From DRGV01 sp018903055 [NCBI: bacterium] (lineage in GTDB: Bacteria > UBP18 > UBA7526), in contig JAHIPW010000056.1 in NCBI GenBank assembly GCA_018903055.1, positions 1 through 12,202 of the forward strand: a stretch of DNA of 12,202 nucleotides, given 5' to 3'. Below the pieces are notes generated by a model. That model was not told where the DNA came from. It worked only from the letters and a program-made list of their open reading frames with translations, and did no database searches. The position numbers were made by a program, and so were the translations under genes. Shown one piece after another: positions 1,443 through 12,150 of the stretch (positions are counted from its first letter, which is position 1; each line of letters starts with the position of its first letter).

Positions 1443-1523
1443 ATTCCATCCCCTGCTCATTTACCCCGTTGCTAACTTCGTCCCAGACTCCTTTCTCTTG
1501 GATATTAGGGGATTTGGATAGAC

Positions 1524-1538
1524 GCCAGACAAGCTGGC
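1524..1538. repeat. Small 5-bp stem hairpin
   Basis: GCCAG (1524-1528) and CTGGC (1534-1538) are inverted around the 5-nt loop ACAAG. On its own this is weak, but the stem-5/loop-5 geometry matches the hairpins at 3457-3471, 9993-10007 and 12048-12080. The rest of 1443-1565 holds no gene that I can support. Confidence 0.35.
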
Positions 1539-1565
1539 TAAATTCTTCGCGATGCTCAGAATGCA

Positions 1566-1605
1566 GGATTTGGAAACTGGGATATTTGGACATTGGGAAT
1601 TTCGC
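1566..1605. repeat. Degenerate octamer array, G-rich on the plus strand
   Basis: Five consecutive 8-bp steps run from 1566 to 1605. The first four units are GGATTTGG, AAACTGGG, ATATTTGG and ACATTGGG, each ending in GG. The unit sequence drifts while the 8-bp step holds. The G-rich strand is opposite to that of the longer array at 1618-1801, so the two form an inverted pair. Confidence 0.6.
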
Positions 1606-1617
1606 TATTCGTCATTC

Positions 1618-1801
1618 TTCTCACTTTCCCACCTGCACACCTGCTCACTTTCTCCCTATCCCCGTTTCTCCCCTTCTCCGTTTCCCCGATTCGCTATCGA
1701 TCCCAATCCCCCAGTCCCCTAATCCTCAAATCCCAGTCTCCCAGTCACCAAATTTCCCTTCTGGTCTATTACCTGATAACCTGATTACCCGATTACCGGC
1801 C
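1618..1801. repeat. Long degenerate octamer array (23 units)
   Basis: Reading 8 bp at a time from 1618 gives 23 consecutive units up to 1801. Position 3 of the unit is C in 21 of 23, and position 5 is C in about 18 of 23. Typical units are ATCCCCGT, TTCTCCGT, ATCCCAGT and TACCTGAT. This array fills most of the 427-bp gap between glnA and the gatA 3' end. Open frames through it are proline/serine-rich by-products of the repeat and show no ribosome binding site or coding character. Confidence 0.75.
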
Positions 1802-1822
1802 CTTCATTTCATTCAGGATCGC

Positions 1823-3430
1823 TTAGTCTCGAGTGAAAACGAGAGGCGGTTTTCTTTTATGCCACTCTGTATTCTGTTCGTAAGTATAGGCAACCTTGAG
1901 GATGGTTTCTTCAGCAAAGGGCTTGGCTAATATCTGTAGTCCTATAGGAAGGCCTTTCTTAGTAAAACCACAGGGGATAGAGATTCCCGGGATCCCAGCC
2001 AAATTGGTGGAAATGGTAAAGATATCTGAAAGGTACATCTTCAAAGGGTCATTGATCTTCTCCCCAATCTTAAAGGACGGGGTGGGACTGGTCGGAGTAA
2101 TCAAGCAATCGCACTTCTCAAGGGCCTTATCAATATCCTCTTTGACTAATGTTCTCACCTTCTGGGCCTTAAGGTAATAGGCATCATAATAGCCAGCAGA
2201 TAGAGCATAGGTTCCCAACATTATCCTCCTCTTTACTTCATCCCCAAACCCCTCTTTTCTTGTTTCCTCATACATCTCTAACAGTCTCCCTGTCTGCCTG
2301 TCCACCTGTCTATCCTGTCGACTGGCTGATCGAAGCGGAGCGGAGATCCCGACCCCTTTCTCCTCGCTTTGTCGGGACTGGCTGACTGGCTTCAGCCCGA
2401 GGCTGATCCGCCTTTGGCGGAGACCGGCTGACGCTCGATGACCATATTTCACTCCCTCATACCTTGCTAAATTGGAAGAGGCCTCGGCAGTGGCAATCAG
2501 ATAGTAAACCGCCACAGCATACTTCGTATGGGGAAGGGAGACTTCCTTTATCTGAGCACCCAATTTCTCCAATAATTTTATGGCATCTTTTACACTCTTT
2601 TCTACCTCTTCATCCATTCCCTTGATGAAATATTCCTTAGGAATGCCGATCTTCATTCCCTTTACATTGTTTACCAAGGACTTTGTATAATCTGGAACAG
2701 GATAGTCGCAAGAAGTAGAGTCTCTCTCATCATAACCGCTTATCACATTCATAAGTAAAGCAGAGTCAGTGACATCCTTTGTTATGGAACCAATCTGGTC
2801 CAAGGAAGAGGCAAAGGCAACCAGCCCATATCTCGATACCCTGCCATAGGTTGGCTTAAGACCAACTACTCCGCATAGGCTGGCCGGCTGCCTAATAGAG
2901 CCGCCAGTATCACTCCCCAGGGCAAGGATGGCCTCATCACTGGCTACCGCTGCTGCCGAACCACCGCTCGAGCCACCGGGAATAGTCTCTAAATTCCAGG
3001 GGTTATGAGTAATCTTAAAAGCAGAATTCTCTGTGCTGGAGCCCATGGCGAACTCGTCCATATTCGTCTTGCCAATAAATACCAAATCGTTCTCTTTTAA
3101 TCTTTTAATTACTGTGGCATCATAAGGGGATTTAAAATTCTCCAACATCTTAGAAGAACAGGTAGTCAAGACTCCATCGATGCACATATTATCCTTGATG
3201 GCTATGGGTATCCCGGCCAATGGAGAAATCTTCTCTTTCTTCTTTATCTTCTCATCAACTATTCTTGCCTGCTTCAGAGCCCCTTCCTTCATTAGAGTAA
3301 CGAAAGAACCCACTTTCTTCTCTACCTTCTCTATTCTCTCGAAGACGCTCTTCGTTACTTCCTCAGAAGAGACTTCTCCTTTTCTAATCAACTTACTTAT
3401 CTCATATGCCGTCAACTCATTCAACTTCAT
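1823..3430 (-). CDS. gatA: Asp-tRNA(Asn)/Glu-tRNA(Gln) amidotransferase subunit A
   Basis: GatA hydrolyses glutamine and passes the ammonia to GatB for transamidation of mischarged Glu-tRNA(Gln) and/or Asp-tRNA(Asn). The amidase-signature Ser-cisSer-Lys triad is intact. With the start at 3430 (MKLNEL) it falls at Lys79, Ser154 and Ser178, matching Staphylococcus aureus numbering, which is why I prefer this ATG over the upstream GTG at 3460. The length is 535 residues against about 485 for the family. The excess is an in-frame insertion at about residues 333-382 (DNA 2285-2434) between the conserved [16 protein letters not shown] and [14 protein letters not shown] blocks. It is rich in Arg, Gln and Ser and is made of short repeats and hairpins, unlike the flanking sequence. 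Both flanks and the C-terminal [15 protein letters not shown] block are normal, so the protein is probably functional. It lies 112 bp downstream of gatC in the same direction. Confidence 0.95.
2281..2320. repeat. Octamer array inside gatA
   Basis: In 8-bp steps from 2281 the plus strand reads ACAGTCTC, CCTGTCTG, CCTGTCCA, CCTGTCTA and TCCTGTCG, the last shifted by one base. On the gatA coding strand this encodes the Arg/Asp/Gln-rich stretch [13 protein letters not shown] second octamer, GACTGGCT, occurs at 2320-2327 and twice in tandem at 2376-2391. Confidence 0.7.
2347..2377. repeat. Hairpin inside the gatA insertion
   Basis: TCCCGAC (2347-2353) and GTCGGGA (2371-2377) form a perfect 7-bp inverted repeat around a 17-nt loop. 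It lies between the octamer array and the double-hairpin element in the extra segment of gatA. Confidence 0.5.
2391..2423 (+). repeat. Double-hairpin element, copy in gatA
   Basis: This copy has the two-stem pattern CAGCC-N3-GGCTG followed by TCCGCC-N3-GGCGGA. It matches the elements at 3918-3951 and (reverse complement) 9875-9908 with only a few substitutions. In gatA it is read on the minus strand as [11 protein letters not shown] without a stop. Confidence 0.8.
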
Positions 3431-3439
3431 TTCTTTGCC

Positions 3440-3537
3440 CTTTCTCACTTTCTCATCCACCTCATCGGTGGACCTGCCGATGCCTCTTCGGCATCCACCG
3501 CAGAGGTGGAAGAGGCAGGCTTTCTCACTTTCTCATC
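3440..3537. repeat. 18-bp direct repeat bracketing a hairpin insert
   Basis: CTTTCTCACTTTCTCATC occurs exactly at 3440-3457 and again at 3520-3537, 80 bp apart. The 62 bp between them (3458-3519) is almost entirely small inverted repeats. The arrangement looks like an inserted segment with a duplicated flank. It sits in the gatC-gatA gap just upstream of the gatA start. Confidence 0.8.
3457..3519 (+). repeat. Double-hairpin element with nested hairpins
   Basis: CCACC (3457-3461) pairs with GGTGG (3467-3471) around TCATC. After one A, CCTGCC (3473-3478) pairs with GGCAGG (3514-3519). The enclosed stretch carries two more hairpins: GATGCC (3479-3484) with GGCATC (3490-3495), and CCACC (3495-3499) with GGTGG (3505-3509). 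Without a 30-bp insert (3481-3510), it aligns with 12048-12080 at 29 of 33 positions. Confidence 0.75.
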
Positions 3538-3542
3538 TGCGT

Positions 3543-3833
3543 TTAATCAATGACCTTGGGGACTTTGAAAAAGCCTCTTGCCTTCTCTGGTGCGCTCTCT
3601 AAAGCTTTCTCCACTTTAAGAGACTTCCCTACTTTATCCTCCCGGAAGACATTCTTCAGAGGTAGAACATGAGAAGTAGGCTTCACCTTTTCTGTGTCCA
3701 GTTCATTTAACTTATCAACATACTTTAGAATTTGATCCAATTGTTTGGCAAACTTCCCCTTCTCTTTTTCTGACAGTTTTAGCCTAGCTAGCTTGGCCAC
3801 ATACTCAACATCTTGTTTCGTTATCTTACTCAT
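3543..3833 (-). CDS. gatC: Asp-tRNA(Asn)/Glu-tRNA(Gln) amidotransferase subunit C
   Basis: GatC is the small subunit that wraps around GatA and stabilises the GatA-GatB complex. The 96-residue length is normal. The family pattern is clear: an N-terminal ITKQDVEYVAKLARLKLSEKE helix region, a QLDQILKYVDKLNELDTEKVKPTSHV middle, and the LPLKNVFREDKV segment followed by a C-terminal APEKARGFFKVPKVI motif. The ATG at 3833 is preceded by GAAAGG (plus-strand 3840-3845) at a good distance. It is the first gene of a gatC-gatA unit divergent from gatB. No insertion is visible in this gene. Confidence 0.95.
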   Translation of the reverse strand: MSKITKQDVEYVAKLARLKLSEKEKGKFAKQLDQILKYVDKLNELDTEKVKPTSHVLPLKNVFREDKVGKSLKVEKALESAPEKARGFFKVPKVID

Positions 3834-3917
3834 TTAAAACCTTTCAAATTTCCACCAGCAAAGATCACCGCTTTTTCATTTTGACTTCCTATTCAAGATA
3901 ATTCTGAAACCACAGAT

Positions 3918-3951
3918 TTCAGCCAGAGGCTGATCCGCCTTCGGCGGAAAC
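3918..3951 (+). repeat. Double-hairpin element, intergenic copy
   Basis: This 34-bp element has two adjacent stem-loops, CAGCC-AGA-GGCTG and TCCGCC-TTC-GGCGGA, bordered by TTT and AAA. The reverse complement of 9875-9908 in tsaB is nearly identical, and 2391-2423 in gatA is a close relative. It lies between the divergent gatC and gatB genes. There is no T-run directly after it in either direction, so it is not a standard terminator. Confidence 0.8.
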
Positions 3952-3990
3952 ACAGGTAGTCACTGTTTTCTTTAAATCAGAGAATTTCTG

Positions 3991-4054
3991 TATCGGTGTA
4001 TCGGTGTCTTTCTCTTTTACTCCCTTACCCCGTTGCTCCCCTACCCCCTTACAC
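3991..4054. repeat. Octamer array between gatC and gatB
   Basis: Eight units in 8-bp steps begin with TATCGGTG twice in tandem (3991-4006) and continue with C/T-rich units such as CCTTACCC and CCCTACCC up to 4054. The C-rich units resemble those of the 1618-1801 array. The remainder of the 397-bp gatC-gatB gap holds the double hairpin at 3918-3951 and the probable gatB promoter region. I see no gene in it. Confidence 0.6.
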
Positions 4055-4105
4055 TATTTTGTGTTCATCCATGTTCATCTAAGGTTTCATTGAAATTCCG
4101 ATGCT

Positions 4106-4133
4106 TTGAGAATATCTTATAAAATAGTATAGC
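4106..4133 (+). promoter_or_regulatory. Possible gatB promoter
   Basis: TTGAGA (4106-4111) and TATAGC (4128-4133) are separated by 16 bp in a markedly AT-rich stretch upstream of gatB. It would leave a leader of roughly 90 nt. Both boxes deviate from consensus and other AT-rich hexamers nearby are possible, so the exact site is uncertain. Confidence 0.35.
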
Positions 4134-4230
4134 ATATTTTAAAACTGTGTGCAAGAAAAAAGTTTTGTTATTTATTTTGATTTATGCTAAACTATTGTTA
4201 TTAAGCCCCCCGCCTAGAAGGAGTGTAGAG

Positions 4231-5745
4231 ATGGAATATGAAGCCATTATTGGGTTAGAGAGCCATGTGCAACTAAAGACCAAATCTAAGATATTCTGCT
4301 CCTGTTCCACAAAGTTTGGGGCGGAGCCTAATTCTCAGGTTTGTCCGGTATGCCTGGGACTTCCCGGGGTTCTGCCCGTCATGAATAGAACTGCCCTGGA
4401 ATATGCTATTAAGGCGGCGTTGGCTCTAAATTGTAAAATTGCCCAAAAGTCCATCTTTGCCCGCAAGAACTACTTCTATCCTGATCTACCCAAGAGTTAT
4501 CAGATATCGCAGTATGAGCAGCCCCTTTCCAGTGGAGGATTTGTGGATGTTATTACAGGTGGAAAGGTAGAGAGGATTAGAATTACCAGGGTTCACCTGG
4601 AAGAGGATGCCGGGAAACTATTGCATGAAGAGGTAAAAGATTCTACCTTAGTAGATCTCAATAGATGTGGAGTCCCCTTAATCGAGATCGTCACTGAGCC
4701 AGATATAAGAAGTGCTAAAGGGGCTCACAGGTTTCTGACTATTTTAAAGAGCATCCTCCAGTATATCGAGGTTTCGGAGTGCAATATGGAGGAGGGGTCT
4801 TTGAGGTGCGATGCCAATATTTCCGTCAGACTGTCAGACCGTCAGCTCATTAACCCGTCAAAAGAAGAAACTGGCAAACTGGCAAACTGGCAAACTGGCA
4901 AACAACTAGGTGTAAAGGTAGAGGTCAAAAATATGAACTCCTTTAAAGCAGTGGAGAAGGCCTTAGAGTATGAGATGGAGAGGCAGATTAAAGCACTGGA
5001 GGAAGGGAAAAGGATTATTCAGGAGACCAGGCTCTGGGATGAGAGTAAAGAAATTACGGTTGCTATGAGGAGTAAAGAGGAGGCTCATGACTACAGATAC
5101 TTTCCAGAACCAGATTTAGTTCCCATAGAGATTGATAGAGAATGGATTGAGAGAATCAGAGAGAGCCTTCCTGAATTGCCCGAGGCGAGAAAGGCGCGCT
5201 TTATTAAGGATTATAAAATTCCAGATTATGATGCCAGTATCTTAACCTCTTCCAGGGAGTTGGCGGATTACTATGAAGAATGCGTTAAGGCACGTCGCAA
5301 ATCGCAGGTCGCAAGTCGCAGGTTCAATAAGGGGATTGCTAACTGGATAATGAGTGAGTTATTGAGGGAACTAAAGGAAAAGAATATGGGAATAAAGGAG
5401 TGTAAAGTAGCTCCGGAACATTTAGCGGAGATGATCGCCTTAATAGATAAAGGAGGTATCTCAGGGAAGATGGCCAAAGAGATCTTTGTTGAAATGTTTA
5501 AGACGGGAAGGAAAGCCTCCCAGATTGTAGAAGAGAAGGGCTTGGTTCAGATAAGCGATGAAGAAGTACTGGCTAAGATAGTTGATAAGATATTGAAGGA
5601 GAATCCCAAGGTGATAGAGGATTATGAGAAGGGAAAGGAGAAGGCTTTAGGCTATCTGGTTGGTCAGGTGATGAAGAAGACTAACGGGACGGCCAATCCT
5701 AGATTAGTCAATAAACTCTTAAAGAAAAAAATCGTTTTTTCTTAA
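4231..5745 (+). CDS. gatB: Asp-tRNA(Asn)/Glu-tRNA(Gln) amidotransferase subunit B
   Basis: GatB binds the mischarged tRNA, activates the acyl group with ATP and completes transamidation with ammonia from GatA. I chose the ATG at 4231 because [15 protein letters not shown] is the family N-terminus and AGAAGGAG lies 7 nt upstream. The frame stays open to 4147, but that extension has no family match. Visible motifs are zinc-type cysteines C23, C25, C38 and C41, [15 protein letters not shown] (80-94), HLEEDAGKL (122-130), [11 protein letters not shown] (190-200) and the C-terminal [14 protein letters not shown]. At 504 residues it is longer than the usual 475-480. The excess sits at residues 201-226 (octamer array) and about 355-364 (heptamer array), both in-frame and between conserved blocks. 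acpS follows after 21 bp, so the two are probably cotranscribed. Confidence 0.95.
4825..4904. repeat. Octamer array inside gatB
   Basis: Ten consecutive 8-bp units run from 4825 to 4904. They begin GTCAGACT, GTCAGACC and GTCAGCTC and end with GGCAAACT three times and GGCAAACA. The array encodes residues about 199-225 of GatB, where typical GatB proteins have only a short loop of about seven residues. No stop codon is generated. Confidence 0.8.
5295..5322. repeat. Heptamer array inside gatB
   Basis: Four 7-bp units, TCGCAAA, TCGCAGG, TCGCAAG and TCGCAGG, encode [10 protein letters not shown] of GatB. Compared with the usual VK-LGGDPKLV-ANW spacing, this region has about eight extra residues. 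A related heptamer, CAGGTCG, recurs in the intergenic array at 10036-10077. Confidence 0.75.
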
Positions 5746-5766
5746 GGATAGGATGGGGTAAGTTAA

Positions 5767-6147
5767 ATGATCAAAGGCGTAGGAATAGACCTTGTTGAGA
5801 TAAAAAGAATTAAAAGGGCCATCGATAATAATAATAAGTTTCTGAAAAAAGTTTTCACTATGGAAGAGATCGCTAAAGGAGAGAAGAAGAAGAATAGATA
5901 TCAGTTCTACGGGGCCCACTTCGCTACCAAGGAAGCGGTGATGAAGGCCCTGGGAACGGGATGGAGAAAAGGAGTAAGATGGATAGATATCCAGATCATC
6001 CATAATAATGATGGAAAGCCAGAGGTTAGATTGGTAGGAAAGACCAAAGAGATTGCCAAGAGATTAGGAATAGACGAAGTCCTGATATCTATGTCTCACA
6101 CAAAAGAGTATGCTGTTGCTCAGGCCATCGCTGTTAAACACGGATGA
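5767..6147 (+). CDS. acpS: Holo-[acyl-carrier-protein] synthase
   Basis: AcpS transfers 4'-phosphopantetheine from coenzyme A to a serine of acyl carrier protein, activating it for fatty acid synthesis. The 126-residue length is typical. The signature parts are present: GIDLVEI with Mg-binding Asp8, FATKEAVMKALGTG with the second metal ligand Glu56, and the C-terminal SHTKEYAVAQAIA block. Translation starts at ATG 5767, 21 bp after the gatB stop, with only a modest ribosome binding site (GGGGTAAG). The last residues (KHG) and the stop codon lie at the edge of a direct-repeat array (6140-6178), so the original 3' end may have been replaced. The acpS-nnr order is common in bacteria. Confidence 0.95.
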   Translation: MIKGVGIDLVEIKRIKRAIDNNNKFLKKVFTMEEIAKGEKKKNRYQFYGAHFATKEAVMKALGTGWRKGVRWIDIQIIHNNDGKPEVRLVGKTKEIAKRLGIDEVLISMSHTKEYAVAQAIAVKHG

Positions 6148-6221
6148 GCACGGATTGAATAACGGATGAGCACGGATTAAATCGGTGCTAATCAGTGTAG
6201 TAAAATCAGTGCTAATCAGTG
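6140..6221. repeat. Direct repeats between acpS and nnr
   Basis: ACGGATGAGCACGGATT is exactly repeated at 6140-6156 and 6162-6178, and the first copy contains the acpS stop codon. Next, GTGCTAATCAGTG occurs at 6185-6197 and 6209-6221. The tracts end just before the AAAGGAG ribosome binding site of nnr. Confidence 0.75.
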
Positions 6222-6242
6222 CATCGACTGAAAGGAGAGTAG

Positions 6243-7823
6243 ATGAGGGTCGTTACTGCAGAAGAGATGCGGGAGATTGACAGGAAGACCATCGCTTCTG
6301 GAATTCCCTCTATAGAACTTATGGAGAATGCCGGAAGAGCAGTAGCAAAAGCAATTAAATCTCATTATAGACCCTTAAGAGGTAAAGAAATCTCTATCTT
6401 CTGTGGCAAGGGGAATAATGGTGGAGATGGACTGGTCATCGCTCGCCTTTTAGCAAAAGAGAAAGCAAAGATTAAAATATTCTTGTTAACAAGGAAGAAA
6501 GAACTTAAGAAAGACCCGAAAACCAATCTTAGAAAAGCATTAAAACAAAAGATAGAAGTAATAGAAACAGATACTTCTCAAAAGTTAAAGAAGTTTAGAC
6601 AAGAAATCAAAAAGTCAGATTTAATTGTTGATGCTATTCTGGGAACAGGAATAAAGGGTGCACCTAAGGGGTTAGAAGCGAAGGCCATTAAGTTTATCAA
6701 TTCCCTGAAGAAGCCCATGGTCTCTGTGGACATTCCCTCTGGAGTGGAGGGAAGCACAGGCCGGGTCTCTGGCGAAGCAATAAGGGCAGATTTGACCATA
6801 ACCTTCGGTCTTCCCAAGATTGGGTTGGTCGTCTACCCCGGAGCAGAGTATGTGGGGAAATTAGAGGTTGCTCACATCGGATTCCCCAAGAGGTTCTTAA
6901 GCGATAAAGAGATTAAGGTATATTTAGTTACTAAAGAAGATATATCATCCTATCTTAAGCCGCGGAGACCAGATACCCATAAAGGAACCTATGGCCATCT
7001 CTTTGTCATTGCTGGTTCGGTTGGTATGACCGGGGCAGCAACTTTGACTTCTCAGGCGGCCTCTCTCTGTTTTGGAGCTCTAAGAAGCGGAGTGGGTTTA
7101 GTCACCTTGGGCATTCCAGAGAGCCTGAATGAGATTATGGAGGTAAAACTAACTGAGGGGATGACTCTGCCTTTACCAGAGACGAAAAAGAAAACCCTTT
7201 CTTTAAAAGCAAAAGAAGAAATACTCAAATTTTCTAAGAAAGCAGATGCCCTGGCCCTTGGTCCTGGGCTATCTGCTAATAAAGAGACTAAACAGTTGAT
7301 AAGGAATCTAATAAAAAAGATTTCTCTCCCCATGGTCATTGACGCCGACGCTCTCAATGCCCTCGTAGGTCACCTTTCTATCCTACAATCCAGGATCCAG
7401 CATCCAGGATCCAGAATCATTACCCCCCATCCCGGCGAGATGGCGAGGCTCATAGGTAAAAAAGCAAAAGAGGTGCAGGAGAATAGAATAAAGGTAGCAG
7501 GCGACTTTGCCAAGAAATATAAGGTGATTGTTGTCTTGAAAGGAGCAAGGACGGTCATTTCTGATCCAAAAGGGAATATCTGTATCAATCCCACAGGGAA
7601 TCCGGGAATGGCCTCTGCTGGTGTAGGGGATGTTTTAACAGGGATGATTGGTTCCTTCTTAGCCCAGAGAAGAGAACCCCTAGAGGCAGCGAAGATGGGA
7701 GTCTATCTCCATGGTCTGGCAGGGGATCTGGCTGCCCAGGAGAAGGGAGAGGAACCCCTTATTGCATCCGATGTCTTGGAGAAACTACCCCAATCTTTCA
7801 AGCAAGTAAAAAGTAACAAGTAA
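6243..7823 (+). CDS. nnr: Bifunctional NAD(P)H-hydrate repair enzyme (epimerase and ADP/ATP-dependent dehydratase)
   Basis: Nnr repairs NADHX and NADPHX: the N-terminal domain epimerises the R and S forms and the C-terminal domain dehydrates the S form. The epimerase domain (about 1-220) shows ELMENAGRAV, GKGNNGGDGLV (55-65), DAILGTG from Asp130 and SVDIPSGV (161-168). The dehydratase domain (about 230-518) shows HKGTYGHLFVIAGS, ALGPGLS, DADALNAL, TPHPGEMARL, VLKGA and NPGMASAGVGDVLTG with the GxGD aspartate at 463. The ATG at 6243 follows AAAGGAG. Two oddities are a heptamer array (7388-7415) encoding residues just before TPHPGE, and a C-terminal SNK plus stop that come from another heptamer array (7804-7838). 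The segment ASLCFG near 273-278 also looks slightly longer than usual. The enzyme appears intact. Confidence 0.95.
   Translation: MRVVTAEEMREIDRKTIASGIPSIELMENAGRAVAKAIKSHYRPLRGKEISIFCGKGNNGGDGLVIARLLAKEKAKIKIFLLTRKKELKKDPKTNLRKALKQKIEVIETDTSQKLKKFRQEIKKSDLIVDAILGTGIKGAPKGLEAKAIKFINSLKKPMVSVDIPSGVEGSTGRVSGEAIRADLTITFGLPKIGLVVYPGAEYVGKLEVAHIGFPKRFLSDKEIKVYLVTKEDISSYLKPRRPDTHKGTYGHLFVIAGSVGMTGAATLTSQAASLCFGALRSGVGLVTLGIPESLNEIMEVKLTEGMTLPLPETKKKTLSLKAKEEILKFSKKADALALGPGLSANKETKQLIRNLIKKISLPMVIDADALNALVGHLSILQSRIQHPGSRIITPHPGEMARLIGKKAKEVQENRIKVAGDFAKKYKVIVVLKGARTVISDPKGNICINPTGNPGMASAGVGDVLTGMIGSFLAQRREPLEAAKMGVYLHGLAGDLAAQEKGEEPLIASDVLEKLPQSFKQVKSNK
7388..7415. repeat. Heptamer array inside nnr
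   Basis: Four 7-bp units, ATCCAGG, ATCCAGC, ATCCAGG and ATCCAGA, lie within the dehydratase domain. They encode part of the linker before the conserved TPHPGE motif and keep the frame open. Confidence 0.75.
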
Positions 7824-7904
7824 CAAGTAACAAGTAAGAGGCTAATAAGTAAATAAGTAAATAAGTTGATAAGTTGATAAGAACGTTAAGCGTTAAGAGT
7901 TAAG
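7804..7904. repeat. Heptamer-octamer-heptamer array at the 3' end of nnr
   Basis: Five heptamers of the type AAGTAAC span 7804-7838 and include the nnr stop codon at 7821-7823. They are followed by five octamers such as AATAAGTA and GATAAGTT (7844-7883), then three heptamers CGTTAAG, CGTTAAG and AGTTAAG (7884-7904). AAGCGTTAAG (7888-7897) is inverted at 7987-7996. The stretch 7905-8050 has no gene that I can support. Confidence 0.75.
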
Positions 7905-8050
7905 CGTTTTTTGGCTTTTGGGTGGGCAAGTTTTCAGATTTCAAGATCCTCAAAACTTTCAATCTTATTACTCAAATTCTTCACTGCTTAACGCTTTTCG
8001 CTTTCCGCATAACACATTTCGTATTTTCTTATTCTCTACTTTTTAATTTT

Positions 8051-8078
8051 GCATTTTGCATTTTGAAATTTAAATTTT
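8051..8078. repeat. AT-rich heptamer steps upstream of the CBS gene
   Basis: GCATTTT occurs twice in tandem (8051-8064), followed by GAAATTT and AAATTTT in the same 7-bp step. The tract ends 3 bp before the ribosome binding site of the CBS-domain gene. AT-richness makes chance similarity more likely here than in the other arrays. Confidence 0.4.
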
Positions 8079-8096
8079 GTTAAAGGGGGTGTTGAA

Positions 8097-8558
8097 ATGG
8101 TAGTGCAAGCGAAGGACATTATGACCAGGGAAGTATTGACAGTGAAAGAGGATATGACGGTAAAGGAGGTGGCAAAATTTCTGGTAGCGCACAGGATAAG
8201 TGGAGCGCCGGTAGTGGATGAGAATGATAGATTGAAAGGAATTGTGACTGAGGCGGACTTAATCATCAGGGATAAGAAGGTCCATATCCCTACCGTGGTC
8301 CAACTTTTGGAAGGAGTAATCTATCTGGAGAGCCCCAAGAGGTTCGAAGAGGAGATGGGCAGGATCTTAGGACAGAAGGTCTCCCAAATCATGACCAAAG
8401 AGGTAATCACCATAAAACCAGATACCTATATCGAGGATATCGCAACTCTAATGTCCACGGAGAGAAAGTATCTTCTACCTGTGATGGAGAAGGACAAGAT
8501 GGTGGGCATTGTAGGGAAGGCGGATGTGGTGAGGGCCATTGCCAAGGGAGAAGCCTGA
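8097..8558 (+). CDS. Two-CBS-domain protein
   Basis: This 153-residue protein consists almost entirely of a CBS-domain pair (Bateman module). The first domain is about residues 6-60 (DIMTREVLTVKEDMTVKEVAKFL then GAPVVDENDRLKGIVTEADL). The second is about 96-150 (QIMTKEVITIKPDTYIEDIA then LLPVMEKDKMVGIVGKADVV). Such modules usually sense adenine nucleotides or S-adenosylmethionine, but a stand-alone pair gives no indication of its partner. There is no membrane segment or attached catalytic domain. The ATG at 8097 follows a strong AAAGGGGG ribosome binding site. The position between nnr and tsaE does not identify its target. Confidence 0.9.
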   Translation: MVVQAKDIMTREVLTVKEDMTVKEVAKFLVAHRISGAPVVDENDRLKGIVTEADLIIRDKKVHIPTVVQLLEGVIYLESPKRFEEEMGRILGQKVSQIMTKEVITIKPDTYIEDIATLMSTERKYLLPVMEKDKMVGIVGKADVVRAIAKGEA

Positions 8559-8614
8559 GACGCAGATTGCAACCGCCAAAGCGCTAAATAGAACTGAAAG
8601 ACGCAGAGAAAAAA

Positions 8615-8693
8615 GATGCGAATCTACACGAATAGTTAACGCAGATGATCGCGAATCAAGAGATGCGAATTATCGCGAATACTTAACGTAGAT
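8615..8693. repeat. Imperfect 32-bp direct repeat between the CBS gene and tsaE
   Basis: The segments 8615-8646 and 8662-8693 share GATGCGAAT, a central GAATA, TTAACG and a final AGAT at the same spacing, and agree at roughly three quarters of positions. The whole 181-bp gap is made of variants of CGCAGAT and GCGAAT words. No gene is evident in it. Confidence 0.55.
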
Positions 8694-8739
8694 AACTGCA
8701 GATTAAAGCGCAAATTACCGTAGATAGTGGGATAGAATA

Positions 8740-9195
8740 ATGATAGAAACAAAGAGTGCTACAGAGACAATAAATTTAGGGAAAAGAATAGGGAAGTTAT
8801 TGCAGGCGGGGGATGTTGTTGCTCTGATCGGGAGGTTAGGGAGCGGGAAGACCACTCTGACTCAAGGTCTGGCAAGGGGTTTAGGAGTAAAGAGAAAAGA
8901 TTATGTAACCAGTCCTTCCTTTACTTTGATTAAGGAGCATAAAGGAAGAATCCCCATTTATCATATTGACCTTTACAGGATAGATAACATTAAGGAGATT
9001 TTTAATCTAGGCTATGAAGAATATTTCTATGGAGAGGGAGTGGCCATCATTGAGTGGGCAGATAAGATAAGAAAACTTTTACCCAGAGAGGTCTTAATTA
9101 TAAATCTGGAAATTATTGGTGAGAACAGAAGAAAGATAGAGCTTGTTCCAAAGGGGAAGCATTACCAAAATATAATAAAAAAGGTTTACGGTTGA
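8740..9195 (+). CDS. tsaE: tRNA t6A37 biosynthesis ATPase TsaE
   Basis: TsaE is the P-loop ATPase that acts with TsaB and TsaD when threonylcarbamoyl is transferred to A37 of ANN-decoding tRNAs. The 151-residue length is typical. The Walker A motif is GRLGSGKTT (31-39), with Arg where Glu is usual in the GELGAGKTT form. SPSFTLIKEH (58-67), YHIDLYRI (74-81) and IIEWADKI (103-110) are the other family blocks. The ATG at 8740 has only a poor ribosome binding site; repeats fill the upstream gap. The last residues (KKVYG) and the stop codon are encoded by the start of a heptamer array at 9183-9210. tsaB follows 73 bp downstream. Confidence 0.94.
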   Translation: MIETKSATETINLGKRIGKLLQAGDVVALIGRLGSGKTTLTQGLARGLGVKRKDYVTSPSFTLIKEHKGRIPIYHIDLYRIDNIKEIFNLGYEEYFYGEGVAIIEWADKIRKLLPREVLIINLEIIGENRRKIELVPKGKHYQNIIKKVYG

Positions 9196-9266
9196 CGGTT
9201 TACGGTTTTTTTACCGTAAACAGTAAACAGTGACGAACAAAGTGAGGAACGGGTAAACGGTAAACG
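9183..9266. repeat. Inverted heptamer arrays between tsaE and tsaB
   Basis: GGTTTAC, GGTTGAC, GGTTTAC and GGTTTTT run in 7-bp steps from 9183 to 9210 and contain the tsaE stop codon (9193-9195). GTAAACG occurs twice in tandem at 9253-9266 in the inverted sense. GTTTACGGT (9198-9206) pairs perfectly with ACCGTAAAC (9213-9221). No T-run follows that stem, so a terminator role is doubtful. Confidence 0.75.
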
Positions 9267-9268
9267 AT

Positions 9269-9976
9269 ATGACAATACTTGGCATTGAGACCTCAACCAT
9301 GACTGGTTCTATTGCTCTGATGGATGAGGAGCGATTGATTGCAGAGTATACTTTAAATCTCAGGGAGACCCATTCCTCAAGATTGATGCCTGCTATAGAT
9401 AGGATACTGAAGGATGCCTCTTTGACTATTAAAGATTTGAATGGAATCGCTGTCTCTTTAGGCCCCGGTTCCTTTACTGGCCTACGCATTGGGATTGCCA
9501 CTGCCAAAGGATTGGCCCAGGGATTAGATATCCCTATCGTTGGAATACCAACCTTGGATGGATTGGCCTTTAATCTCTCCCATTGTAAGGATTTAATCTG
9601 CCCTATCTTAGATGCTAGAAAGGGAGAGGTCTATTGTGCTTTGTATAAGAATGGAAAAAGACTCACTAAGTATATGGCTTGTGAACTGGGTGAATTGTTA
9701 AAAAAAGTAAAGTCCAAAGTCCGAAGTCCAAAGTCCAAAGTCGTATTTCTCGGAGATGGGATTGAGATCTGTGGAGAGTTGATTAAGAAGAGATTAGGAA
9801 AAAAGGCGATTTTTATTTCTAAATCAAGAAGATTACCGAATGCTTCATCCATCGCTGAGTTAGGATTGAAGAAGTTTCCGCCAAAGGCGGATCAGCCTCT
9901 GGCTGAAAAGAGAAGCAAAAAGAGTGAACTCCCAACCTTGAGACCTATCTACGTTCGAGCACCAGTGGGAAAGTGA
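9269..9976 (+). CDS. tsaB: tRNA t6A37 biosynthesis protein TsaB
   Basis: TsaB is the ASKHA-fold partner of TsaD that scaffolds the t6A transferase with TsaE. Family features are ILGIETST (3-10), THSSRLMPAI (34-43), the strongly conserved LGPGSFTGLRIG (64-75), PILDARKGEVYCALY (112-126) and the C-terminal RPIYVR. The length, 235 residues, is normal. The ATG at 9269 has no close Shine-Dalgarno; GAGG at 9244-9247 is too distant. Two repeat-derived tracts lie in the variable C-terminal half: the heptamer array at 9709-9743 (VKSKVRSPKSKV, 147-158) and the double-hairpin element at 9875-9908 (FPPKADQPLAEK, 203-214). Both keep the frame. rimI and tsaD, frequent neighbours, are not present here. Confidence 0.94.
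   Translation: MTILGIETSTMTGSIALMDEERLIAEYTLNLRETHSSRLMPAIDRILKDASLTIKDLNGIAVSLGPGSFTGLRIGIATAKGLAQGLDIPIVGIPTLDGLAFNLSHCKDLICPILDARKGEVYCALYKNGKRLTKYMACELGELLKKVKSKVRSPKSKVVFLGDGIEICGELIKKRLGKKAIFISKSRRLPNASSIAELGLKKFPPKADQPLAEKRSKKSELPTLRPIYVRAPVGK
9709..9743. repeat. Heptamer array inside tsaB
   Basis: Five 7-bp units (AAAGTCC three times, one GAAGTCC and a final AAAGTCG) encode a Lys/Ser-rich tract at residues 147-158. Because 7 is not a multiple of 3, successive units are read in different frames, and none creates a stop. Confidence 0.8.
9875..9908 (-). repeat. Double-hairpin element, copy in tsaB
   Basis: The reverse complement of this 34-bp segment is almost identical to 3918-3951. 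In tsaB it is read as FPPKADQPLAEK. It has the same orientation relative to transcription as the gatA copy but is read in a different frame. Confidence 0.85.
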
Positions 9977-9992
9977 GGGGTTACAGGCCTCC

Positions 9993-10034
9993 CGCCCCTA
10001 AAGGGCGAGGCTCGCCCGAAGTAAATTTCGGGCG
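9993..10034. repeat. Pair of hairpins downstream of tsaB
   Basis: CGCCC (9993-9997) pairs with GGGCG (10003-10007) around a 5-nt loop. CGCCCGAA (10013-10020) pairs with TTCGGGCG (10027-10034) around a 6-nt loop. The spacing and two-stem layout resemble the other double hairpins of the window. No T-run follows, although the position after tsaB would suit a transcript 3' end. Confidence 0.65.
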
Positions 10035-10035
10035 G

Positions 10036-10077
10036 CAGGCTACAGGCTTCAGGCCACAAACTGCAGGTCGCAGGTTT
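10036..10077. repeat. Heptamer array downstream of tsaB
   Basis: Six 7-bp steps run from 10036: CAGGCTA, CAGGCTT, CAGGCCA, CAAACTG, CAGGTCG and CAGGTTT. It begins 2 bp after the hairpin pair. The rest of the 342-bp tsaB-ilvD gap holds the hairpin at 10193-10215 and the ilvD promoter, with no supported gene. Confidence 0.7.
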
Positions 10078-10192
10078 TTAAGACCTCTGATGACAGTGAT
10101 TCTCGAATGATTATAGTGATAAAATCTCCAATGGGATTGAGGGATTTTGTACCTTCAACATCACTGCCAATGCTTAATTATTTATGCTCTCT

Positions 10193-10229
10193 AGGATGCC
10201 AGCGTAGCGCATCCTGAATCTCCTTTTTT
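10193..10229 (+). terminator. Hairpin, possibly a weak terminator before ilvD
   Basis: AGGATGC (10193-10199) pairs with GCATCCT (10209-10215) around a 9-nt loop. A T-run lies at about 10223-10229, roughly 7 nt after the stem, which is far for intrinsic termination. It may instead be another dispersed hairpin of this genome. Confidence 0.35.
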
Positions 10230-11995: not shown

Positions 11996-12142
11996 ATGTT
12001 ACTACGTTCCGCCAATGCGGAACTGTTACTATTGGTTACTACGCTTTCCGCCTCATCGGCGGACCAGCCGAAGAGGCTGGCGCTGTTACTATCGGTTGCT
12101 GTAACTGTTAGTAACTGTTTAGTAACCCTTAGTAACTGCTAG
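11996..12142 (+). CDS. Possible 48-codon Leu/Val-rich leader-like ORF (doubtful)
   Basis: AAGGAGG (11986-11992) sits 3 nt before an ATG that opens 48 codons ending in TAG at 12140-12142. By my count the peptide has 13 Leu and 5 Val, including a run of four Leu at residues 10-13, which recalls leader peptides of branched-chain amino acid operons. It lies between ilvD and the next gene and covers three hairpins. Against it, the spacing to the ribosome binding site is short, there is no Ile, no T-run terminator follows, and the sequence is built of repeats (for example CTGTTACTAT at 12023 and 12083). It could be a by-product of those repeats. Confidence 0.2.
   Translation: MLLRSANAELLLLVTTLSASSADQPKRLALLLSVAVTVSNCLVTLSNC
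12006..12023. repeat. Hairpin downstream of ilvD
   Basis: GTTCCGC (12006-12012) pairs with GCGGAAC (12017-12023) around CAAT, a perfect 7-bp stem. It is 25 bp upstream of the double hairpin at 12048-12080. There is no T-run after it. Confidence 0.6.
12048..12080 (+). repeat. Double-hairpin element upstream of the last gene
   Basis: CCGCC (12048-12052) pairs with GGCGG (12058-12062) around TCATC. After one A, CCAGCC (12064-12069) pairs with GGCTGG (12075-12080) around GAAGA. It is a 33-bp relative of 3457-3519. Its reverse complement has the same stem order (CAGCC type, then CCGCC type) as the 34-bp element at 3918-3951. Confidence 0.8.
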
Positions 12143-12150
12143 TAACCTTC
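12101..12150. repeat. Degenerate 10-11 bp tandem repeat
   Basis: GTAACTGTTA and variants (GTAACTGTTTA, GTAACCCTTA, GTAACTGCTA, GTAACCTTCA) occur about five times in tandem. Together with the hairpins above it fills the gap between ilvD and the next start codon. Confidence 0.65.

What the first reader, a model, noticed from the sequence alone, without database searches (positions are those of the whole stretch)
1566..10077. Degenerate 7- and 8-bp step arrays pervade the window, inside and between genes
At least nine tracts hold a strict 7- or 8-bp step while the unit sequence changes from tract to tract: octamers at 1566-1605, 1618-1801, 2281-2320, 3991-4054, 4825-4904 and 7844-7883; heptamers at 5295-5322, 7388-7415, 7804-7838, 7884-7904, 9183-9210, 9709-9743 and 10036-10077. 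This resembles the heptanucleotide STRR sequences of heterocystous cyanobacteria, except that here the step rather than the word is conserved. Plain slippage from one parent word does not obviously explain it. A templated or enzyme-driven process with a 7-8 nt register is one speculative idea.
Basis: partly seen in the sequence, partly recalled or inferred. Interest (0 to 1): 0.78.

Follow-up and report, generated by a model that had tools for sequence, protein, structure and literature searches.

The report
Genome-wide 7- and 8-base repeat arrays
An uncultured bacterium and its closest relatives carry many short stretches that repeat every 7 or 8 bases, between genes and even inside core genes; the same spot in a sister species often keeps the rhythm but changes the letters, an extreme form of a repeat type already known from other bacteria.

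Summary
All 13 listed tracts hold their step better than shuffles of themselves. In 186 kb of the genome there are 75 lag-7 and 33 lag-8 tracts, against 2 and 1 in a Markov control. Lags 7 and 8 dominate, also in three sampled relatives.

"The step, not the word, is conserved" is half right. At the same gap in related species the word is usually different (1 of 16 shared). Yet words recur at unrelated loci of one genome (127 same-word heptamer pairs, 7 expected), and 272 of 312 merged tracts have a dispersed partner. About a quarter have a strong inverted match, rarely exact over 14 bases (1 of 305).

Best reading: long simple-sequence repeats, a known kind. Units arise by local duplication in a 7-8-nt register, then spread between loci by recombination or template switching. 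MutS and MutL are undetected in all six genomes held of the phylum; small samples suggest a link but also exceptions. A dedicated enzyme is not excluded and not shown. New variant of a known kind.

The parts
1452..1856 (.). 405-bp array block between glnA and gatA: octamer tracts 1618-1692, 1702-1749, 1768-1797, plus the loose 1566-1605 tract; about 11-12 bp at this place in sister genome G001
   Evidence: tracts; 405 bp against 11 bp in G001
1789..1853 (-). Core A, dispersed element of about 60 bp next to the ATTACCTG octamers; elsewhere it lies between inverted GGTTTAC-type heptamer arrays. The gatA stop codon lies in it
   Evidence: 5 copies, this one included, in 733 kb of sampled family DNA
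2277..2310 (.). Octamer tract (CCTGTCTN) inside gatA, where relatives have a short loop; G001 has a short heptamer array here, G003 no insertion
2391..2424 (+). Core C in gatA: double-hairpin repeat TTCAGCC..GGCTGA TCCGCC..GGCGGA type; further copies at 3918-3951 (+) and 9874-9907 (-)
3440..3535 (.). CTTTCTCACTTTCTCA octamers on both sides of a palindromic core (3460-3520, no second copy found in the sample); most of the block 3449-3547 is absent from G001
3989..4052 (.). Octamer tract upstream of gatB, word changing from TGTATCGG to TCCCTTAC types
4825..4903 (+). Octamer tract inside gatB (GTCAGACT.. then AAACTGGC x4.5); G001 has AAACGGGG x4 in the same loop and lacks 24 bp; G002 and G003 have no insertion
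5290..5323 (+). Heptamer tract inside gatB (TCGCARG); G001 has 21 bp more; G002 has an AACTCCC heptamer tract at the matching place; G003 none
6135..6228 (+). Hairpin CACGGATGAGCACGGATT..AATCAGTGCTAATCAGTG across the acpS stop codon into the acpS-nnrD gap; 68 bases (6158-6225) identical in G001
   Evidence: (z -3.15)
7388..7418 (+). Heptamer tract ATCCAGG inside nnrD (NAD(P)H-hydrate epimerase/dehydratase)
7804..7921 (+). End of nnrD and downstream: heptamers AAGTAAC, octamers AATAAGTA (7835-7881), heptamers CGTTAAG (7884-7921)
7986..8078 (.). Heptamer-step tract GCTTAAC..TTGCATT with an overlapping lag-8 part at 8017-8057; by eye its start GCTTAACG is the reverse complement of CGTTAAGC in the tract before
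9183..9266 (+). Hairpin: GGTTTAC array across the tsaE stop codon, then inverted GTAAACA and GGTAAAC arrays before tsaB
   Evidence: z -2.33
9709..9742 (+). Heptamer tract AAAGTCC inside tsaB
10031..10075 (+). Loose heptamer tract CAGGCTA/CAGGTCG downstream of tsaB
10165..10216 (+). Core D, dispersed hairpin element with 13 listed copies (this one included) in 733 kb; elsewhere beside ATCTGTG-type repeats and, in L196, inside an AAATCAC-type hairpin

Best explanation
The tracts are a genome-wide population of long simple-sequence repeats with 7- and 8-nt units, in a small uncultured phylum (six genomes held) in which no MutS or MutL was detected. New units arise by local duplication of the neighbouring unit in a fixed 7-8-nt register. 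The likeliest agent is replication slippage or re-priming, with the register set by the stretch of template held by a polymerase (hypothesis of Mrazek and co-workers, read here only as cited by others). Once an array exists it serves as homology for recombination or template switching with similar arrays elsewhere, so words spread between loci, also in inverted orientation, and small palindromic cores sit in or beside arrays. Arrays are gained, lost and rewritten faster than genes diverge, and survive where harmless: soon after stop codons and in loops of conserved proteins. Shown: the step, its presence over the sampled genomes, decay of identity between units, sharing of words, dispersed partners, different words at orthologous sites, interrupted inverted arms, no match to MutS/MutL. 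Inferred: slippage as agent, the polymerase as ruler, recombination as carrier, and that missing mismatch repair helps, for example by letting diverged copies recombine.
For: Lags 7 and 8 dominate: G000 14.8 and 7.7 tract bases per kb against 0.1-3.0 at lags 4-6 and 9-12; G001 18.1 and 17.7 (0.3-3.5 at those lags), G003 11.0 and 12.2 (0.1-3.1), G002 4.8 and 2.9 (0.4-1.7); E. coli K-12 has 0 tracts at lags 7 and 8 in 50 kb. Identity between units falls with distance: 0.754, 0.663, 0.599, 0.515, 0.432 for heptamers (123 tracts for d 1-4, 79 for d 5) and 0.748 to 0.548 for octamers (78; 57 at d 5). GatB differs between sister species by 24 bp (3 octamers) and 21 bp (3 heptamers), with four adjacent units all AAACTGGC in one and AAACGGGG in the other. 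Words recur above chance: 335 against 21 and 79 against 1.5 over four genomes; 127 against 7.1 and 33 against 0.6 between different loci of one genome. 272 of 312 merged tracts have a dispersed partner at E 1e-6 against 51 of 186 tract-free gaps, and 39% of 418 within-genome pairs extend 15 bp or more beyond the tract on one side. Tracts fill 5.6% of intergenic and 0.7% of coding bases in G000; 210 tracts of four genomes in same-strand gaps lie a median 17 nt after the stop and 71 nt before the next start. MutS_V unmatched in 6 of 6 family genomes (14 of 15 others have it), MutL in 6 of 6 (13 of 15 others have it), RecA found in 6 of 6. Of 9 MutS-lacking genomes of other phyla sampled without regard to arrays, 4 have 8 or more lag-7/8 bases per kb, against 0 of 14 short MutS-bearing stretches and 4 of 80 named stretches.
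Against: No polymerase property was measured; the ruler is borrowed. Plain slippage would be expected to make other unit lengths and, without mismatch repair, long homopolymers, but runs of 8 or more are fewer than in a Markov copy (16 against 48), and lags 4-6 stay low (0.1-1.7 per kb). In fission yeast loops above four nt are not MutS-alpha/MutL-alpha substrates (PMC5427490, abstract and start of introduction seen), so MMR loss need not act on 7-8-nt units directly. MutS-bearing genomes can have 7/8 tracts (G178 12.0 and 18.6 per kb, G193 6.5 and 6.2, on contigs chosen for an element hit), and MutS-lacking samples can have none (G041, G166, G187). Blocks nearly absent at the relative's site (405 bp against 11 between glnA and gatA) look more like insertion than slippage. 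Within-array decay is partly built in, because tracts were detected by neighbour identity.
Confidence: 0.5

Rival explanations
1. Mobile hairpin elements (MITE- or REP-like): the arrays are arms of non-autonomous elements moved by a transposase, and the step is a property of their ends.
For: Composite copies within one genome, for example 90% over 105 bp (L032/L166), 96% over 105 bp (two places in L180), 91% over 129 bp (L193/L203 of G001). Filled and nearly empty sites between sister species: 405 against 11 bp, and a block of about 90-98 bp. Cores A, C and D recur inside or beside arrays of different words. 24.6% of 305 tracts have an inverted match scoring 16 or more in their own locus, against 4.0% with other loci.
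Against: Y1_Tnp (RAYT) has no match in 6 of 6 family genomes, 11 of 15 others have it. No clear target-site duplication or fixed ends seen. Only 3% of within-genome partner pairs extend 15 bp beyond the tract on both sides. Of 111 inverted matches scoring 14 or more, 65 are self-overlapping palindromes and only 46 have two separate arms. Units in one tract decay like neighbour duplicates. Other transposase families were not searched.
Confidence: 0.22
2. A selected function: arrays or their interrupted hairpins act in RNA or DNA (mRNA 3' ends, pausing, binding sites), and the step fits a bound protein or periodic internal loops.
For: Tracts lie close after stop codons (no gap-matched control was made). 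Four of six folded examples, picked because they looked like hairpins, have z below -2.3. Inverted arms in one locus avoid long perfect pairing: in 46 two-arm cases the longest run is 6.6 against 8.4 expected and none reaches 14; for matches to other loci 22 of 133 do. The acpS-nnrD hairpin keeps 68 identical bases in G001. Heptamers upstream of starts were proposed as translational sites (PMC4679880, abstract).
Against: Of 69 orthologous gaps, 26 have a tract in one species only, and of 16 with tracts in both, 15 differ in word class. 20 of 117 G000 tracts lie inside genes. Only 24% of 225 tract-centred 120-mers fold with z below -2, against 7% of random pieces. Avoided perfect pairing may only mean that perfect hairpins are cut or lost.
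Confidence: 0.13
3. Loss of mismatch repair alone drives the arrays by unrepaired slippage.
For: MutS and MutL undetected in 6 of 6 genomes with RecA present. 4 of 9 MutS-lacking genomes of other phyla reach 8 or more lag-7/8 bases per kb (G016, G060, G066, G110), against 0 of 14 MutS-bearing GatB stretches and 4 of 80 named stretches.
Against: Homopolymers depleted and 2-6-nt arrays low in G000. 7-8-nt loops exceed the repair limit found in fission yeast (PMC5427490, abstract). MutS-bearing G178 and G193 have tracts, MutS-lacking G041, G166 and G187 samples none. The comparison is small, uneven in sample length and gene content, and not corrected for descent. NucS_C matches pass the family cut-off in 4 of 6 genomes (24.4-25.5 bits) but over only about 40 of 124 positions, so a substitute repair was not settled.
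Confidence: 0.08
4. A dedicated enzyme writes or copies the arrays in 7-8-nt steps, for instance a template-switching polymerase, primase-polymerase or reverse transcriptase.
For: Dominance of two unit lengths, step kept while words change along a tract and between species.
Against: No candidate gene looked for or found beyond MutS, MutL, NucS, RecA and Y1_Tnp. The same steps occur in samples of unrelated phyla, and heptamers are reported for many prokaryotes, so a general polymerase property would suffice.
Confidence: 0.07

Closest known systems
Prokaryotic long simple sequence repeats of 5-11 nt (Mrazek and co-workers 2007; paper not held, read as cited in PMC4679880 introduction and PMC4692102 introduction and discussion)
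   Same: Tandem arrays beyond chance, heptamers the commonest of the longer units; a polymerase footprint of about 7 nt was proposed as cause
   Different: Here octamers are as common as heptamers in G001 and G003, units are degenerate, dozens of words coexist, and inverted and composite forms occur
GGGNATC-type heptamers of Xanthomonas and Nostoc (PMC4692102; abstract, introduction, discussion, homology section and found passages seen)
   Same: Genome-wide heptamers, enriched in intergenic DNA, 70 and 75 inverted pairs in two Xanthomonas genomes, same gaps in related species with varying length and sequence
   Different: There one G-rich, quadruplex-forming word type, 83% kept in the same context between the two species. 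Here many words, and usually a different word at the same gap
TAACTGA heptamers of Beggiatoaceae, cyanobacteria and Bacteroidetes (PMC4679880; abstract, introduction and found passages seen)
   Same: Heptamer arrays in many gaps, some inside genes, patchy distribution over phyla
   Different: One fixed word, mostly just upstream of start codons; here tracts lie nearer the preceding stop and words vary
STRR heptanucleotides of heterocystous cyanobacteria (recalled; three Calothrix heptanucleotides are cited in PMC4692102)
   Same: Heptamer step
   Different: Few conserved words there; no octamers that I recall
REP/BIME and MITE elements (recalled)
   Same: Small palindromic dispersed cores, here cores A, C and D
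   Different: No RAYT gene matched in the six genomes; no ends or target duplications established

Membership tests
Prokaryotic long simple sequence repeats (5-11 nt units) | Tandem arrays of a 5-11-nt unit beyond statistical expectation | tested here: met
   75 and 33 tracts at lags 7 and 8 against 2 and 1 in a Markov copy of 186 kb
Prokaryotic long simple sequence repeats (5-11 nt units) | Heptamers the leading class | tested here: inconclusive
   Leading in G000 and G002, about equal in G001, octamers slightly ahead in G003
Prokaryotic long simple sequence repeats (5-11 nt units) | Copy number varies by whole units (slippage) | tested here: inconclusive
   Two sites only: 24 bp = 3 octamers and 21 bp = 3 heptamers in GatB; no within-population reads
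STRR / TAACTGA / GGGNATC heptamers | One or a few fixed words | tested here: not met
   77 heptamer and 53 octamer word classes with exact dimers in four genomes; the commonest heptamer class covers 14 of 152 tracts
GGGNATC quadruplex repeats | G-tracts able to form quadruplexes | not tested
   The ten commonest heptamer classes hold no GGG, several octamer classes do; quadruplex folding was not computed
TAACTGA repeats | Located just upstream of start codons | tested here: not met
   210 tracts in same-strand gaps of four genomes: median 17 nt after the stop, 71 nt before the next start
REP/BIME elements | RAYT (Y1_Tnp) encoded in the genome | tested here: not met
   PF01797 no match in 6 of 6 genomes, which are incomplete (53-93%)
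MITE | Terminal inverted repeats | tested here: inconclusive
   Two-arm inverted matches in a minority of tracts, imperfect
MITE | Target-site duplication | tested here: inconclusive
   Alignments with G001 gave no clean junction; only a possible 5-bp TAAGT around one core copy in L196
Known RNA families | Rfam match | tested here: not met
   0 matches in the window at gathering thresholds

The most novel reading that the evidence does not exclude
A dedicated process with a 7-8-nt ruler, distinct from ordinary slippage, writes and rewrites arrays throughout these genomes: it copies words between loci in both orientations, keeps inverted arms interrupted, and re-fills the same gaps and protein loops with a different word.
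Probability: 0.1. Interest if true: 0.85.

Novelty: new variant of a known kind. Interest (0 to 1): 0.5.

Why it matters
Why heptamers dominate the longer simple repeats of prokaryotes was left as a hypothesis in the papers seen. This family offers an extreme case: two unit lengths dominate, many words coexist, turnover is fast, and sister species give filled/empty pairs, so rival causes (polymerase footprint, recombination, mobile hairpins, lost mismatch repair) can be tested with population reads and purified polymerases. Arrays that sit in frame inside GatA, GatB, NnrD and TsaB also show how repeat turnover can add loops to core proteins.

Tried and rejected
MutS/MutL loss as sole cause: not favoured, not excluded. 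In one search's 19 samples (18 genomes, 8 samples on contigs chosen because an element hit lay there; L266, 297 bp, not scored; L271 reads as all N) exceptions occur both ways.

RAYT-driven REP elements: no PF01797 match in the six genomes. Universal words: the pattern (AACCAGT)x3 with up to one mismatch was found in 3 of 6 family genomes and 3 of 380 others; the reversed control pattern in 4 others, so this word is not universal. A 162-bp hairpin query (L198:212-373) matched 9 of 191 genomes outside the family; 7 of the 9 have MutS.

Hairpins as the general rule: too strong; 24% of 225 tract-centred pieces of G000 and G001 against 7% of random pieces reach z below -2. In one search an exact 14-base inverted partner was rarer in the own neighbourhood (0 of 381) than elsewhere (1.5%); this led, chosen after seeing that result. 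One search, which also looks inside the tract, has 1 of 305 (L186 92-224) against 1.9%. mixes self-overlapping palindromes with two-arm cases; one search separates them.

Hot-spot gaps: at 22 orthologous gaps of G000 and G001 arrays are in both 6, only G000 3, only G001 3, neither 10 (Fisher p 0.08), so a preference for the same gaps is not shown. All 16 gaps with arrays in both species share at least one step, which says little as there are only two; a change of step at one site was seen in GatA alone. The flank-based count (13 of 16 G000 tracts have a tract in the G001 gap) uses a looser threshold, two gaps count twice, and that output was cut after the G001 part.

Sampling: tract counts use 53 of 191 G000 contigs (window included; 289 kb; one search used 33 of them, 186 kb), 196 kb of G001, 98 kb of G002, 150 kb of G003. 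Eight further G000 contigs (L041-L048), fetched because gatB DNA hit them, were left out of the counts. G004 and G005 were searched for genes and patterns but not sampled for tracts. The named-organism search returned nothing above 59% GatB identity, so the taxon is unnamed. Gene calls come from my own simple codon-usage caller. Scripts failed before worked. No paper on octamer arrays of this kind was seen in the listings of eight searches; subscription journals are mostly not held.

Full report
What was checked. The window is contig 37 of a 1.085-Mb draft genome (G000, 191 contigs, 85% complete). Its genes are ordinary: glnA, gatA, gatC, gatB, acpS, nnrD, a CBS-domain protein, tsaE, tsaB and ilvD (NCBIfam matches; the CBS gene only by weak domain matches below cut-off). 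Only six genomes of its phylum are held, all in one family.

All 13 tracts beat shuffles of themselves. In 186 kb including the window there are 75 lag-7 tracts (3,202 bases) and 33 lag-8 tracts (1,584 bases), against 2 and 1 in a Markov copy; the other lags from 4 to 13 give 1 to 16 tracts. With the larger sample, tract bases per kb at lags 7 and 8 are 14.8 and 7.7 in G000, 18.1 and 17.7 in G001, 4.8 and 2.9 in G002, 11.0 and 12.2 in G003; lags 6, 9, 10 and 12 show smaller excesses (up to 3.5). 80 stretches of named genomes from other lineages give 1.26 and 0.38; E. coli K-12 has none in 50 kb. So two steps dominate throughout the sampled family.

Where the tracts lie. Of 117 merged tracts in G000, 80 are intergenic, 17 cross a gene end and 20 lie inside a gene. 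They cover 5.6% of intergenic and 0.7% of coding bases; in G001 it is 11.0% and 0.9%. For 210 tracts of the four genomes that lie between genes on one strand, the median distance is 17 nt after the stop codon and 71 nt before the next start, and 68% are nearer the stop. Inside GatB they sit where other genomes have a short loop (nine genomes aligned).

What changes between species. GatB offers two arrays. At the first, G000 and G001 share the flank and four adjacent octamers, but all four read AAACTGGC in one and AAACGGGG in the other, and G000 has 24 bp more. At the second, G001 has 21 bp more of TCGCAGG-type heptamers, and G002 has an AACTCCC heptamer tract at the matching place. In GatA, G000 has an octamer array with a palindromic core, G001 a GACCTGC heptamer array, G003 no insertion. 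Over 69 orthologous gaps in five genome pairs, 16 have tracts in both species, 26 in one, 27 in neither, and only 1 of the 16 shares a word class.

What is shared nevertheless. The same words return: the commonest heptamer class, AAAATGC, is found in 14 tracts of four genomes, AACCAGT in 12, the octamer AAAGTGAG in 10; same-class pairs are 335 for heptamers and 79 for octamers, where random genomic words give 21 and 1.5. Restricted to different loci of one genome they are 127 and 33 against 7.1 and 0.6. 272 of 312 merged tracts match another locus at E 1e-6, against 51 of 186 tract-free gaps. Some copies are composites: core A lies between inverted GGTTTAC-type arrays in G000 and G003 but beside ATTACCTG octamers in the window; core D lies beside ATCTGTG-type repeats and once inside an AAATCAC-type hairpin; core C inside heptamer and octamer arrays.

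Inverted forms. 24.6% of 305 tracts have an inverted match scoring 16 or more in their own locus, against 4.0% with other loci. Of 111 matches scoring 14 or more, 46 have two separate arms and 65 are self-overlapping palindromes. The arms are interrupted: over the 46 two-arm cases the longest exact run is 6.6 bases where random placing of the mismatches gives 8.4, and none reaches 14; inverted matches between different loci behave nearly randomly (9.9 against 10.3, 22 of 133 reach 14). One tract of 305 has an exact inverted match of 14 or more (L186 92-224). Mismatches tend to recur 7 or 8 bases apart (obs/exp 1.48 and 1.27), as they also do in direct matches (1.36 and 1.32), which follows from the arms being repeats. 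Either perfect hairpins are removed or interruptions are useful; I cannot tell.

Mechanism. Unit identity falls steadily with distance, as neighbour duplication predicts, though detection by neighbour identity favours this, and the two resolved GatB length differences are whole units. This supports local duplication. It does not explain why 7 and 8; the proposal in print is that about 7 nt is the stretch held by the polymerase (read as cited in PMC4679880 and PMC4692102; the 2007 paper is not held). Sharing of words, composites and nearly empty sites need a second process that copies arrays between loci; recombination or template switching between similar arrays is the simplest, mobile hairpins the main rival.

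Mismatch repair. MutS and MutL have no match in the six genomes while RecA has. 7-8-nt loops lie beyond the repair limit found in fission yeast (PMC5427490, abstract), and homopolymers are depleted rather than raised, so if the loss matters it may be through recombination of diverged copies. Other phyla give a mixed picture: 4 of 9 MutS-lacking genomes sampled without regard to arrays reach 8 or more lag-7/8 bases per kb, against 0 of 14 short MutS-bearing stretches and 4 of 80 named stretches of unknown MutS status; but MutS-bearing G178 and G193 have tracts and MutS-lacking G041, G166 and G187 samples have none. The samples differ in length and gene content and are not corrected for descent.

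Compared with what is known. The arrays meet the definition of prokaryotic long simple sequence repeats. They fail the fixed-word criterion of STRR, TAACTGA and GGGNATC repeats, and the start-codon location of TAACTGA repeats. Xanthomonas heptamers come closest: inverted pairs, same gaps, varying length, but one word type and mostly kept between species (PMC4692102). Not seen in those papers are co-dominant octamers, a large shared vocabulary, different words at the same sites (and a different step in GatA), in-frame arrays in GatA, GatB, NnrD and TsaB, and interrupted arms. I file it as a new variant of a known kind.

Limits. Drafts are incomplete (53-93% for the relatives), so absence of genes is not proof, though six of six agree. 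About 27% of G000 was sampled. No reads, no transcripts and no strain-level comparison were available.

Noticed in passing
window 6158-6225: A 68-base run in the acpS-nnrD hairpin is identical in G001, while the aligned region around it (5744-6833) is about 86% identical; most other arrays compared have different words.
   Followed up: partly
window 1789-1853: The gatA stop codon lies in dispersed core A, so an insertion seems to have rewritten the end of the protein.
   Followed up: partly
G000-G005: Neither MutS_V nor MutL domain is detected in any of six genomes of this phylum; NucS_C matches pass the cut-off in 4 of 6 but over only about 40 of 124 positions.
   Followed up: partly
G000 sample (289 kb): Homopolymer runs of 8 or more are fewer than in a Markov copy (16 against 48) despite undetected mismatch repair.
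   Followed up: no
L032 1890 and 13880, L166 4502; L180 14678 and 16064: Long G-rich/C-rich hairpin-like repeats (TTGGTAGTTGGGTTAGGGTAAGG type) recur in G000 at about 89-96% identity within two groups.
   Followed up: partly
G000 C27:598-805 (L003, L209, L287): A short frame in contig 27 matches parts of GatA (80% over 65 residues) and GatB (57% over 44 residues), perhaps a partial second copy or a misbinned contig.
   Followed up: no
window 12097-12147: A further tandem tract with a 10/21-bp period near the window end.
   Followed up: no
L277 (G178), L274 (G193): Unrelated MutS-bearing genomes carry octamers such as GGCACAAA and AGGCACTA in similar 7/8-step tracts.
   Followed up: partly
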